Below are positions 16,483 to 59,185 of a stretch of 64,000 bases of DNA, piece after piece. The position numbers were made by a program, and so were the translations under genes. Source of the DNA: Homalodisca vitripennis (Eukaryota; Arthropoda; Insecta; Hemiptera; Cicadellidae). Where the stretch lies: contig NW_025776835.1 of NCBI RefSeq assembly GCF_021130785.1, positions 62,001 through 126,000 on the forward strand. The letters run 5' to 3'. Under the pieces are notes generated by a model. The model had not been told where the DNA came from. It did not search any database and saw nothing but the letters and a program-made list of their open reading frames with translations. Every line of letters begins with the position of its first letter. The stretch's first letter is position 1.

Positions 16483-16506
16483 GTATAACTTTGGAACGTT
16501 TGTTGA
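16483..16506 (+). other. Candidate 24-nt microexon, alpha type (unit 1)
   Basis: A complete set of splice signals surrounds 24 nt. The branch-point word CTAAT is at 16,457-16,461 (branch A 16,460, 22 nt upstream), followed by the acceptor TTCTGTTGCAG and, directly after the exon, the donor GTAAGT (16,507). Read as G / TAT AAC TTT GGA ACG TTT GTT / GA it is open (YNFGTFV) and its length is a multiple of three. Paralogues are at 36,847, 39,245 and 59,154, all with the same signals. The partner exons were not found. Confidence 0.55.
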
Positions 16507-17222
16507 GTAAGTTAATTAAGGTCAATGCATTAATATATGACCTAAAGAATTTTTCTGCAGCTTTTATTATTACAGTACTGGAAGTATACATTTTTTATTT
16601 TATAACTGAAACAATTTTGTGAAACGGCTGTAACTTAATATTTCAACATTTCGCCTTTTCTCGTAATTTAGAAATTACAACCAAATTTGTCTTCTATTTT
16701 TTTAAATGTATTACTGCATTCATTACAATGATGCTTGAGGAAAGGATCGTGGACATTTAACTGGACCATTTGTAATGTAGCGTCCGACGTTTTCGAAAAT
16801 TCTATCTAGGTGATAAGTGTTACATTTTTGCGCATATATCTTTCAGTATACTCTTGTTGTTTTTATAGTTGGAAAATGTCATATTAAGAAATTAACATGA
16901 ATTGTGCTTAAATGTTACCGTACCATGGCGAGCTAACTGCTATAAATGATTGGAATCGTCTTTTTTAAGATATTTTTGTGGTCTCAATATCTGTAAAACC
17001 TCCATTGACTTATTATAATTTACAATACTTAGATAACACTCTTGTTTAATTAAAAGACAGTATTGTTGTATAGTATAAATTAGAAACATAATTACAACGT
17101 TTTTATAAAACGCAGCAGATTTTCAAAAAAATCCTAATTCTACAATAAATTAGTTAATGGTGTATCTATATGATTTGATGCATCCTAAGGAATCGTATTT
17201 CTAAGGACCACAATAGTGTATG

Positions 17223-17304
17223 CACACACACACACACACACACACACACACACACACACACACACACACACATATATATATATATATATATATATATATA
17301 TATA
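17223..17304. repeat. (CA)n(TA)n microsatellite
   Basis: About 50 bp of CA followed by about 32 bp of TA. Confidence 0.95.
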
Positions 17305-17859
17305 ATCTTGCTTAACTGACTCGTTTCTCTCCTCGTTGTTTCTCACTACCCATAATGTATGTTTTGGGAACATTTTCACGCTCAAAAATTTATATCAGAA
17401 ATAAGAAGAGTCTGGCATATCATGGTCATATGTGTATTTGTTAAGTCAGCTACTTTTTTTGTACTATTTCAACCAATTTTTATGGATATAAGACATGTAT
17501 GGTTCCAATATTAAGCTCTTCTTACCAGTTATCTAAATAAAAATATGTAAAATTTTGTTACCATATAATTTTTTGTTTAGTTATTGAAACATTATTAACA
17601 ACCGTCACATTATTTTGATGATTTTTTCCAGAAGAAGTAAGGTATCTTTCAATGTAATGTTCTGTTATTGAATAACTTCATACATAAGACCTCAATTTAA
17701 ATTTCTAAATTTAAATGTATTATTCTTATAGCTTGGTTTTCAAACCAAGAACTTATAAAGATAATTGTACAGTTCAGAATTAACTTTGTGGTGAAAACTA
17801 GTTACGTCTCTAAAATCCTTTCTATCCCCTAATTATTGAAATACTACCACATTACTGGA

Positions 17860-18060
17860 GAGCTTGTAGGATACAACGCGGATCAGTCCACTTCGAGCCC
17901 CATTTAGAGGAATTGAGAGAAGAATCTGGAGACCATTGGAATTGGTCGGGGCGGAGTGGGACGTGACGTAACATCACGTAGCTCATATTTCGTTATAGTA
18001 ACGGAACGGTAGACGCCATTTTGTGTACTCAAACACGTGCAGCTGAGCTCGGGTTATTAA
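17860..18060. other. GC-rich private stretch with CRE-like sites
   Basis: Locally GC-rich. Contains GGGACGTGACGTAACATCAC, a pair of facing CRE-like half sites, and GACGCCATTTTGTG. No counterpart in units 2 or 3 was found. Could be a promoter-like element or part of a mobile element; no open frame supports a gene. Confidence 0.35.
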
Positions 18061-18069
18061 TACACTAGG

Positions 18070-18390
18070 TATGAGCACGCCACACACTGTGTCATGTAAC
18101 AAGCTTCACTAATGCTGCATGCAAAATATCGAGTCTATGGCTACATGAGTAAAGGTAACCCATGAGACCAACATAACAATGTTCGCTAACGGCCATTAAA
18201 ATACCATGGTGTGACACGCACCAACATCAAACTCGATGTTTATTTTATAGAAATGTAGCTTCATGCTAAACTCCAAGTCTATATATAAGTTTGTTTTCGA
18301 GATATCGTGCAGACATACGGATGTGAAGTTTTTTACAATCCCTCGAGCCCTTGAGTGATAGGCTTCGCTGACGCTCAGACAAAATACACT
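18070..18390 (+). repeat. Interspersed repeat R, near full length
   Basis: Has both halves: CATGTAACAAGCTTCACTAA and GCTGCATGCAAAATATC upstream, then AGACCAACATAACAATGTTC, CATGGTGTGACACGCACCAA, CATCAAACTCGATGTTT, GTAGCTTCATGCTAAA, TTTCGAGATATCGTGCAGAC and GAGTGATAGGCTTCGCTGAC. Confidence 0.7.
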
Positions 18391-18690
18391 CTACTTGAAA
18401 AGTGTTTTCAAGAATATTTCAATTTTAAAATACGCTTATTGAGTAAGATTAAATATACTTCTCTTGGTTGATAAATACCAGCATAAGTTCCAAACTGTGG
18501 GTAGATGGCCAACAATATTAAAACAGATAAAAGGTATGGCACTTTTTTTTCAACAAATTTCTTGTTCGTGGGGTCACGATGGGTGGAGACGCTAATTAAC
18601 CCTCGAGATAACCATTCATTGGTAGTACTATCCAGCATCCAAAATAACTTGACATAGTCATGATTACTTCAAAATGACAAAGTAATCTGA

Positions 18691-56509: not shown

Positions 56510-56925
56510 ATAATACTAATAACTAACGAGTACCCCATAACACGTGTCGAGAAACATGCTTCGTTGCAACGTGCTGTATGCAAGATTTCAAGTTATAGTT
56601 CATTTGATTTGCCTACATGTGTTAACATGTAACAATTTAAAATATCATACTCAGTTATCAGATTATCTCAATTTCTATATAAATGTATTAATTCTGCGAT
56701 TCTCCCGTTGTAATCATGGTCACTAACATAAGATCAACGTGAAATATTCACTAACGCACAGTAAAATATCATGAAGTGACAGCATCGCACTCGATGCTGC
56801 TTGTTGTCTACAAGTTATCATTATCGAGATAACGTACAGACAAACAGACAGTCAGATAATAATGAAATGTATGCAGCCTCTCGATTTACAAGCTCCGCTA
56901 CTGTTCATATCATAAATAAATATTT
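56510..56925 (+). repeat. Interspersed repeat R, near full length
   Basis: Counterpart of 34,240-34,640, with both halves present. Confidence 0.65.
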
Positions 56926-57259
56926 ATTTTAAGAAAACTTAGAACTTCTATAATCTGCTATCCGTTTAAGTACCCATACATTAAATATTTAATTAATGTT
57001 TCCATCAAACGAACTTTTAACGACATTAAATTTCTATAGTTTCTTGGAAAAAAGTGTAGTCGCACTTTACTTATTATTATAATGATTAGCTTATAATGTA
57101 ACTACTCGTTGATTCTCACTCCTAGTCTCATTTTTACACCTATATAACCATAAAAACTAACATTATAAATGTATCGTTCTCACCGACAGTTATTCTTTGC
57201 TAGGTGTAATATTTTGTCTACTCCTGGTGTAACTACGGTAACGTAATAAGTACACATGC

Positions 57260-57415
57260 TGCAGCTGATACAACATCTGTATGGAGATGACAGTCATTAC
57301 AACACCAGCCCAAGTACAGTCTGGTATGTTATTGTACAGAACTGTACTGGTGTGTGTTCATTCACCACACAGCGATGTGGTTACATACCACTTCAATCAA
57401 GCGAGGTAACTTTTC
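57260..57415. other. Conserved island C, unit 3
   Basis: 57,296-57,399 is identical to units 1 and 2. The ATG frame stops two codons after the identical run, at a GAGGTAACT donor-like site. Confidence 0.65.
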
Positions 57416-57904
57416 TCACATATCGGTGTTAATTGCCGGTATCAAAATGTCCATCAACCTCTGTTTTAAAGTTTGTTTTTTGGCGATTTTAGGTCTGTAA
57501 AACAATATTTACAGAGATTTACACAACCATAACGCGTATAAAAAAGCCCCGTGTGCTTTTGTTTATTTTAACTTTGTTTGTATTTATTTGTTGGATTGGG
57601 TATCTACCTGAGGAAGTCATCAAACCGCAGATTGCGAAACATGGTATTACGGATTTTTTTATATACATGAACTAAGGCAAGTGTTCAAGACCCCTATGTT
57701 ACCTTCACATGTATATGTATATCTTGTTTAGTTAAAAAATCAAAATTTATTTTACAGTATTATAAGTGATATAACTGATAGGTTCTTCTTAGGTAAATCT
57801 CAAATCATAATTGGTCAAAGTACAATGTAAGAACAGTAAATAATGTAACATTATTCCCGAAAATGTTAATGATGTTCACAGATAATTAAACAGGGTCTAT
57901 AAAC

Positions 57905-58045
57905 TATGGCCCGACACAGAGGCATGAAACCTTAATAGCAGACTGTGCCAAAGCATGTAATAACGGCGTGATGTGAAAGCTGAACTTCGCTCGTTTGCTA
58001 TCAATGGACTTTTTTGTTGCAGTTCCTTTCTAAGTAAATCTACCT
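57905..58045. other. Island B, beta module, unit 3
   Basis: Near-identical to 35,625-35,755, with one A lost in TATCAATGG. Confidence 0.5.
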
Positions 58046-59153
58046 TTACCTACATTCACTTGTATATTTTAAGTTTCGTTATTTTCTTTTCTGGTTTCCA
58101 ATACGTGTGCGGTAAAATAAGCTTGTAATTTATACAACGTTTTATTGATGTTAGAGGAACTTTTACATCAGAAACATAAACCGGAAGTGTTGTAAGTACT
58201 ACATTGTCTGTCTTTTTTAAGTTCACTCGAATTCATACGGGACCTGGTGTTTATAAATTTTTAGCACTATACCCTCATTGGTTGATTTATCCCTATTCCT
58301 GGAAAACTAAACAAGAATGTCTTCATCTATCTTCATGGTCGCCTAAGAACCCACGTCAAATTTATCCCGGTCTATGGCATCATCTGGTTTCAGGAGTTAC
58401 CAGTCTTTGGGAGTTCCAGGATTTTTGACTCTACTAAATATGTGGGGGTTTCCTTTACTCTGAAAACTCATATCCTTTTAGAGCTCTTGACCTCTGGGAA
58501 ATTCTGACCAATGATAGCTTCCAGCCTCTAGATTTGTGTCTCTGGGAACTTTAATTTTTTGGGAGCACCTGATTTTACGAAGCTTTCAGCTTAAAAAATA
58601 TTCCAGTTGAGTTAACCCTACCCTATTTCAGCTCCCGATTCTAAGATAACCATTTATAACCACAGGCAAACTGGAACTCTCACTTACTTTTTATTCCGTT
58701 TAATATTGAACTGTATTCGACTTACGTTGGTCCATCCGGGTTCTATAAATTCAAGACTAAAAAGTATAGATACTATAACCCCAAATATATATATTAAACA
58801 AATAATCGTACACATATAATGTGCTTAACTTATCAAACACATTGTATACGAGACATCTACTTGTGGTTATTATGCAGGCTCAAATTTATAGCAACTTCCG
58901 GTAGCAACTTCCGCCTGTGATCCATTTTGGGCCGGATTGACGCTGCAATACCTTCGAACATCTCTACCATTTTATCATAATAATTTGTTTCTTTGGTATT
59001 TTTAAATTGCTAGTAACACTGGCATTTTCATTATTTAAAAAAAATAATAATTCAGTACGTAAATCCTTTTGTGTTTCTAACTTTCACTAACATAAGTGGT
59101 ACTTTTAAATTTTTAATTATTTCAACACTAATGAATGTACTGTTTTGTTTCAG

Positions 59154-59185
59154 GTATAACTCTTCTTACGCTTTCTTTCGTTTGA
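59154..59185 (+). other. Candidate microexon, beta type, 32 nt (unit 3)
   Basis: Branch word CTAAT (branch A 59,131), acceptor TGTTTTGTTTCAG and donor GTAAGT (59,186) are all kept. The exon has two extra T relative to the 30-nt copy (CTTTCTTTCGTTTGA), so it is no longer a multiple of three. Either a decayed exon or homopolymer sequencing error. Confidence 0.4.

What the first reader, a model, noticed from the sequence alone, without database searches (positions are those of the whole stretch)
16483..59185. Four paralogous microexons with full splice signals
Exons of 24, 30, 24 and 32 nt each have CTAAT branch word 22-27 nt upstream, a T-rich acceptor and GTAAGT. Three keep a frame multiple of three and differ inside the exon (YNFGTFV, YNSSYASFV, YNFGTYV) while keeping both ends. 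Families rich in microexons are known in insects, for example BICYCLE genes of aphids, and escape ORF-based annotation. I do not claim homology.
Basis: partly seen in the sequence, partly recalled or inferred. Interest (0 to 1): 0.8.

Follow-up and report, generated by a model that had tools for sequence, protein, structure and literature searches.

The report
Leafhopper tandem microexon family
Four tiny 24-32-letter exon-like pieces sit in repeated copies of one stretch of a leafhopper genome; their splicing signals are kept while their middles change, so they are probably real micro-exons, but the gene they belong to was not found.

Summary
Exons of 24, 30, 24 and 32 nt lie at 16483-16506, 36847-36876, 39245-39268 and 59154-59185 (+), each with CTAAT, T-rich acceptor and GTAAGT. 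They are not independent: the window is three tandem ~20-23 kb segments, and these are copies of one ancestral exon. The 2.3 Gb genome has a 15,304-base, 78.4% AT mitochondrial contig, as published for Homalodisca vitripennis. I found ten copies; nine are 18, 24 or 30 nt, one (59154) is 32. Across five deep lineages the most conserved 40-column windows within 1.2 kb are the acceptor and exon start, while the exon middle varies nearly like its flanks. In one copy the acceptor AG is lost and a new AG gives an 18-nt exon. The conserved branch-type acceptors between diverged paralogs on + (5 of 16 testable) are all this exon. I found no convincing further microexons in 194 kb, no CYC motif, no signal-peptide exon and no recognisable host gene, so membership of the BICYCLE, KQY or schistosome MEG families is not supported. 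Expression is untested.

The parts
16483..16506 (+). Microexon copy A, 24 nt, YNFGTFV in phase 2 (ITLERLL in phase 1); CTAAT 26 nt upstream, GTAAGT at 16507
   Evidence: 99% identical relative at C721:184002-184099
36847..36876 (+). Microexon copy B1, 30 nt, YNSSYASFV in phase 2; CTAAT 25 nt upstream, GTAAGT at 36877
   Evidence: same 30-nt exon at C721:206111
39245..39268 (+). Microexon copy B2, 24 nt, YNFGTYV in phase 2; CTAAT 30 nt upstream, GTAAGT at 39269
59154..59185 (+). Microexon copy C, 32 nt, not a multiple of three: two single-T differences from its 30-nt sisters; splice signals intact
16440..16518 (+). Conserved splice block of copy A: branch word, pyrimidine tract, AG, exon, donor
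   Evidence: 16459-16513 is 93% against 73% over its whole aligned block, A vs B2; top windows of 1.2 kb in five lineages
14129..14253 (+). Conserved block blk3 in segment A (also 35005-35129 and 57281-57399): ATG-started open frame, candidate 5' coding exon; weak
14755..14916 (+). Conserved block blk4, about 1.1-1.7 kb before each microexon copy in the window; no + frame open, 9 of 11 copies with one- or two-base indels, so probably not coding
15971..16147 (+). Conserved block blk5, upstream of the microexon; 6 of 7 copies carry indels that are not multiples of three; followed by a donor-like GTAAGT at 16180 conserved at 38931 and C721:183748
1662..1835 (.). Conserved CpG-rich block blk1 (also 24416-24589 and 47596-47768); a 50-nt core is 82% identical to blk4
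1..64000 (.). Three tandem segments of about 20-23 kb: A about 1-22.4k, B about 22.4-45k, C about 46.4-64k; a blk4-blk5-microexon module (copies 2.1-2.4 kb apart) is duplicated inside B

Best explanation
It is a genuine microexon, usually one per segment of a tandemly duplicated locus in the leafhopper Homalodisca vitripennis (species inferred). Shown by sequence: branch word, acceptor, first and last exon bases and donor are kept across deep paralogs while the middle changes, and lengths are 18, 24 or 30 nt in nine of ten copies. Because the phase is equal on both sides, inclusion, skipping or swapping of copies would not shift the frame, so duplication supplies alternative short inserts. Segment B has two such exons 2.4 kb apart.
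For: Five deep lineages (A, B1, B2, U2, C8b): invariant columns 10 of 12 at the donor, 5 of 5 in the last exon bases, 5 of 7 in the first, 23 of 46 on the acceptor side, but 4 of 18 in the exon middle and 41 of 227 and 25 of 248 in the flanks. Over -700..+500 (1770 columns, 229 invariant) every window with at least 24 of 40 invariant lies at -33..+10. Conserved CTAA[TC] acceptors: + strand 5 of 16 testable, all five copies of this exon; - strand 1 of 4. Of 6 open exon-length AG..GT pairs listed on + within the window (7 in all), only the two entries of this family have partners at 73-80% identity; the other four are shared only by the 92% B/C pair. Nine of ten copies are multiples of three. 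C721:9085: the ancestral AG is lost and an AG six bases on gives an in-phase 18-nt exon.
Against: No RNA evidence. No flanking coding exon was established: a scan for third-position substitution excess found 0 windows, and a 120-nt candidate (3229-3348 and relatives) has 13 nonsynonymous to 2 synonymous codons A vs B. The frame is undecided: minimum changes within groups are 4 nonsynonymous and 1 synonymous in phase 2, 3 and 2 in phase 1. In-frame length evidence rests on about two events (24/30 and 24/18) against one frame-breaking copy. The exon middle is at most weakly protected: identity 0.54 against 0.48 and 0.37 in flanks (deep), 0.89 against 0.71 and 0.68 (A-group), but 0.86 against 0.88 and 0.90 (U-group) and 0.83 against 0.94 and 0.93 (B1-group). 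Donor words are weak support: GT[AG]AGT is conserved 9 of 20, but two of four six-base control words reach 37-38%, and GTAAG (24 of 52) is like its reverse complement CTTAC (26 of 65). Two exons are identical to another copy's.
Confidence: 0.6

Rival explanations
1. A splice-constrained exon of a non-coding or untranslated transcript: splicing is conserved but the exon is not translated.
For: Exon middle only slightly, or not, more conserved than flanks; no coding-type exon found nearby; blk1, blk4 and blk5 are conserved but carry frame-breaking indels in some or most copies; copy C is 32 nt; no frame is preferred.
Against: Nine of ten lengths are multiples of three, and the acceptor shift at C721:9085 also keeps phase.
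Confidence: 0.22
2. The exon belongs to a large gene built from many miniature exons encoding a secreted salivary protein, like aphid bicycle or KQY genes; the other exons are too small or too diverged for these scans.
For: Phase 2, one of the two possible here, is the rule for internal bicycle exons (PMC9168663, passages); KQY1a spreads 37 exons, 33 of 15 bp or less, over 45.7 kb (PMC7495047, abstract). Tandem duplication and variable interior fit. Same insect order. Window-only scan without branch word: 8 on + vs 3.0.
Against: No excess of further microexons in 194 kb (20 on + vs 19.9); no signal-peptide exon found; no CYC motif in the copies read; bicycle genes were not found in the Psylloidea, Aleyrodoidea or Fulgoroidea sampled (PMC9168663, passages).
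Confidence: 0.12
3. A chance splice-like triplet copied by segmental duplication and conserved for another reason, or a decayed exon.
For: The strict triplet is expected about 0.5 times per window; copy C is frame-broken.
Against: Conservation peaks on the splice parts in five lineages and a lost AG is replaced in phase.
Confidence: 0.06

Closest known systems
bicycle genes of aphids, phylloxerids and coccids (PMC9168663; passages read)
   Same: Hemiptera; microexons; internal exons of one phase (2, possible here too); diverging interior
   Different: Those genes have about 17 exons on average, signal sequences in many and often CYC motifs; here one microexon type per segment, none of the other traits found
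KQY and KHI cassette effectors of pea aphid (PMC7495047; abstract, outline and passages read)
   Same: Miniature exons in genes of tens of kilobases
   Different: Many exons of 15 bp or less and a conserved signal peptide region; neither found here; those loci are mostly scattered, this one is tandem
Schistosome micro-exon genes (PMC10526429; part 1 of Results and Discussion, figure legends and tables read)
   Same: Short exons mostly multiple of three; clustered on some chromosomes
   Different: Flatworm; 10-20 short exons per gene; this genome is a leafhopper
Tandem duplicated, mutually exclusive exons (PMC9741552; search listing only)
   Same: Adjacent paralogous in-phase exons, as in segment B
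   Different: Mutual exclusion is untested; most copies lie in separate 22 kb segments

Membership tests
bicycle genes | Many small internal exons (about 17 exons on average) | tested here: not met
   One microexon type per segment; other candidates in 194 kb at chance level, 20 vs 19.9; conserved branch-type acceptors on + are only this exon. Limits: 43% of the 194 kb has two or more diverged paralog alignments, exons under 9 nt were not scanned, and a window-only scan gave 8 vs 3.0
bicycle genes | Internal exons start in phase 2 | tested here: inconclusive
   Frames for phase 2 and phase 1 are both open in nine copies, frame 0 is stopped in all nine; no neighbouring exon fixes the phase
bicycle genes | N-terminal signal sequence | tested here: not met
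   Best conserved ATG exon is the weakly hydrophobic blk3 candidate, 4 partners, weak GTGTGT donor; only aligned stretches were searched
bicycle genes | CYC motifs | tested here: inconclusive
   No cysteine in the nine copies in either open frame; the rest of the protein is unknown
KQY/KHI cassette effectors | Conserved signal peptide region plus many exons of 15 bp or less | tested here: inconclusive
   No signal exon found; the smallest exons were not searched
bicycle or KQY | Salivary gland expression | not testable with these tools
   No expression data
Schistosome MEG | Schistosome genome | tested here: not met
   Mitochondrial contig 15,304 bases, 78.4% AT, equal to the H. vitripennis row in PMC5660246
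Functional microexon | Conserved acceptor, branch and donor across paralogs | tested here: met
Functional microexon | Present in spliced RNA | not testable with these tools
   No reads or cDNA held

The most novel reading that the evidence does not exclude
A leafhopper (Cicadomorpha) counterpart of the miniature-exon secreted-protein families so far described in aphids and their allies: a tandem locus that keeps splice signals and phase fixed and lets an 18-30 nt exon core diversify, with neighbouring copies usable as in-phase alternatives.
Probability: 0.13. Interest if true: 0.7.

Novelty: new member of a known kind. Interest (0 to 1): 0.42.

Why it matters
Exons this small escape ORF-based annotation. 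If expressed, this locus is a natural series of ten copies in which splice signals are held and the exon core changes, useful for studying microexon recognition in a large-genome insect, and it would ask whether miniature-exon genes exist outside aphids, phylloxerids and scale insects.

Tried and rejected
Schistosome origin: suggested to me by the microexons and a 121-bp array. The organism was then inferred from the mitochondrial contig and PMC5660246. One translation of the mitochondrial locus used wrong coordinates; the ORF list replaced it.

Searches that gave nothing: Pfam on 10 window ORFs, 0 families at E 1; Rfam, 0 at gathering and 9 below gathering at E up to 1; tRNA 0; one protein search 0; viral contigs 0; one 20-base match in a bacterial MAG, taken as chance.

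120-nt exon at 3229-3348: not accepted, frame open but nonsynonymous excess in three pairs, 13:2, 10:1 and 7:1. blk1 as coding exon: its frame +1 is stop-free in 5 copies with the lowest N/S, 1.5, but two of six copies carry indels of 2 and 1; rejected. blk3 as first exon: left open; frame +1 is stop-free in the aligned part of 10 of 10 copies with N/S 1.56, the lowest of six frames, but frame +0 is stop-free too (N/S 3.6) and five alignments start 19 bases in, the 3' part shifts frame in three of ten copies and copy D lacks the ATG. Structured RNA in blocks: eight folds have z between -1.71 and 0.93. Other aligned AG..GT pairs in 194 kb: 18 on + and 7 on - have two or more diverged partners; of the 18, five are this exon, six lie in blk3 with weak donors, seven elsewhere; none looked convincing to me.

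Faulty or uninformative steps: one search compared equal-length stretches unaligned, so its group percentages are void and one search replaces them (its exon listing stands). The pattern was mistyped (not the family's sequence); its 529 hits against 401 control hits say nothing about the family. Scripts 18, 55 and 56 failed for a missing module or file. Searches used thresholds that missed some or all of the family.
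Full report
What is there. All four reported exons exist at the stated places with the stated lengths and signals. In the window the exon ends are nearly fixed (GTATAACT... and ...GTTGA, or GTTTGA in the 32-nt copy) and the donor is GTAAGT followed by an AT-rich stretch.

Setting. The window has 32% GC. Its longest open frames are TG-repeat translations on both strands near 40 kb; the longest other one is 212 codons and partly microsatellite. Self-comparison shows three tandem segments of about 20-23 kb, A, B and C; B and C are 92% identical over 6.4 kb, A against B or C mostly 64-77% where alignable, with a few stretches at 80-86% and satellite or inverted stretches higher; part of A (8.3-11.3 kb) is inverted relative to B and C. 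A smaller module is duplicated inside B, which therefore has two microexons.

Genome and species. The own-genome search placed the window at C721:62001-126000 of a 2.305 Gb genome in 14,901 contigs. COX1 lies on contig C14901, which reads with the invertebrate mitochondrial code, has 15,304 bases and is 78.4% AT. PMC5660246 (passages) lists Homalodisca vitripennis at 15304 and 78.4%. Against this, PMC8496328 (passages) estimates that species' genome at 1.74-1.96 Gb, smaller than this assembly. I infer the species from the mitochondrial match. C721 is a 264 kb contig; relatives of the segment lie on C8 near 106.5-106.64 Mb and on C4490.

Family. The module search gave 7 places, six on C721 and one on C4490. 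The window copy at 59154 and two found by reading around relatives of block blk3 make ten: C721:9085 (18 nt, SATFV), 46501 (24, YGSATLV), 78483 (24, YNFGTFV), 98847 (30, YNSSYASFV), 101245 (24, YNFGTYV), 121154 (32), 184052 (24, YNFGTFV), 206111 (30, YNSSYASFV), C4490 (24, YGSPTFV), C8:106595553 (24, YGSSTFV), peptides as read in phase 2. Misses: blk3 has 11 places; of these, C8:106530905 shows no microexon in the 5 kb read, and at C721:164010 only 70 of 151 bases of blk3 match and no exon was found in the contig scan.

Chance. The strict triplet occurs 4 times in the window against about 0.5 expected on both strands, and in 194 kb 7 times on +, all family, and never on -, against 1.1 per strand. 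Because copies are related, the stronger test is conservation. In five deep lineages the splice parts and exon ends stand out and the middle does not: invariant columns 10 of 12 (donor), 5 of 5 (last bases), 5 of 7 (first bases), 23 of 46 (acceptor side), 4 of 18 (middle), 41 of 227 and 25 of 248 (flanks). All windows with at least 24 of 40 invariant columns within 1.2 kb lie on the acceptor and exon start. Of 16 testable + strand acceptors with a CTAA[TC] branch word, 5 are conserved, and all are copies of this exon; on the - strand 1 of 4. These counts treat related copies as separate.

Donor words alone are weaker evidence. Conserved GT[AG]AGT words are 9 of 20 on + and 3 of 30 on -; five of the nine are this exon, three are one donor-like site about 300 bases upstream (16180, 38931 and C721:183748), one is elsewhere (42664). 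But two of four six-base control words were conserved at 37-38% (the others 0 and 11%), and GTAAG (24 of 52) hardly differs from CTTAC (26 of 65).

The copy at C721:9085 is telling: where its sister has TTTAGGTATGG, it has lost that AG, and an AG six bases downstream gives an 18-nt exon in the same phase. The 32-nt copy differs from its two 30-nt sisters by two single T insertions; real decay or a homopolymer error cannot be told apart here.

Frame and selection. Frame 0 is stopped in all nine in-length copies; the frames for phase 2 and for phase 1 are both open. Minimum changes within close groups are 4 nonsynonymous and 1 synonymous in phase 2, 3 and 2 in phase 1, too few for a test. In phase 1 the U-type copies read MALLLSL or MALLLWL (LLLSL in the 18-nt copy) and the A-type ITLERLL or ITLELML, a leucine-rich alternative that I cannot exclude. 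The middle is protected little if at all: 0.54 identity against 0.48 and 0.37 in flanks (deep set), 0.89 against 0.71 and 0.68 (A-group), 0.86 against 0.88 and 0.90 (U-group), 0.83 against 0.94 and 0.93 (B1-group, including the 32-nt copy). It may be diversifying or simply free.

Gene. I looked for partner exons in several ways: aligned AG..GT pairs, open-frame pairs, first and last exons, substitution periodicity. None gave a convincing coding exon. In one search, 18 pairs on + and 7 on - have two or more diverged partners; five of the 18 are this exon and six lie in blk3. At medium stringency the 194 kb holds 20 candidates on + and 13 on - against 19.9; a window-only scan without the branch word gave 8 on + and 4 on - against 3.0, maximum 7, at least three of the 8 being this family, so a few more exons are not excluded. 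The best lead is blk3, with an ATG-started frame (MEMTAITTPAQVQSGMLLYRTVL / MDIAPFTPARLQRGLLLFRTVL) stop-free in the aligned part of 10 of 10 copies, N/S 1.56, lowest of six frames; a second frame is stop-free too. Its donor would be a weak GTGTGT, its 3' part is inconsistent between copies and copy D lacks the ATG. blk1, blk3 and blk4 were found only at C721, C4490 and C8:106.5-106.64 Mb (9, 11 and 12 places); blk5 was not searched genome-wide. blk1, blk4 and blk5 carry indels or stops that argue against coding; blk1 and blk4 share a 50-nt core, which suggests regulatory elements. Coverage limits: 76% of the 194 kb has some paralog alignment, 59% a diverged one, 43% two or more.

Comparison. 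Small exons of one phase in a hemipteran recall bicycle genes (PMC9168663, passages) and pea aphid KQY genes (PMC7495047, abstract and passages). The many-microexon structure and signal sequence were not found, and no CYC motif in the part seen, so I do not file it there. PMC9168663 reports no bicycle homologs in the Psylloidea, Aleyrodoidea or Fulgoroidea sampled; the word leafhopper does not occur in its main text. I saw no paper on such a family in leafhoppers in one search on leafhopper, microexon, tandem duplication and alternative splicing (8 of 13 papers listed).

Verdict. A likely real, splice-constrained microexon family in a tandem locus. How it works is inferred: in-phase inclusion or swapping of a short variable peptide. 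Interest is moderate because the host gene, frame and expression are unknown.

Noticed in passing
G000 C721:133.7-148 kb (L023-L025), outside the window: Polinton-like element: separate ORFs match rve integrase, DJR-like capsid domain, PLA2-like and Bro-N Pfam models; ORFs that I took for DNA polymerase B and protease had no Pfam match. Described only.
   Followed up: partly
window 10573-11064 and 30464-31313; copies at C721 27.3-28.9 kb and 171.4-173.5 kb: 121-122 bp satellite arrays, inverted in segment A relative to B; not the schistosome repeats by the primer words tried
   Followed up: partly
window 1662-1835, 24416-24589, 47596-47768: CpG-rich element about 96% identical across segments that are otherwise about 75% alike; 9 places found in the genome, all at this locus or its relatives
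   Followed up: partly
window 14116-14253, 34992-35129, 57268-57399: About 100 bp identical in A, B and C in a 75% background; selection or gene conversion
   Followed up: partly
window 40010-40735: 726-bp (TG)n array
   Followed up: no
L026:3238-6812 (C721 about 159.2-162.8 kb): 135-bp tandem array whose translation is open for 1012 codons; probably an artefact of a period divisible by three
   Followed up: no
L028:2515-3923 (-): Transposase-like ORFs by my recollection; the one scanned matches Pfam DUF4371
   Followed up: no
own genome, several large contigs: 31 COX1 matches in total, many on chromosome-size contigs and with TAA or TAG stops, so probably many nuclear mitochondrial copies
   Followed up: no
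window 60128-60411: Short-period tandem repeat around ATCGTTCATCAGTGATCAGTCATCA
   Followed up: no
exon copies at C721:46501, C4490, C8:106595553: Read in phase 1, these copies start with ATG inside the exon and give MALLLWL or MALLLSL, which resembles the start of a signal peptide; untested
   Followed up: no
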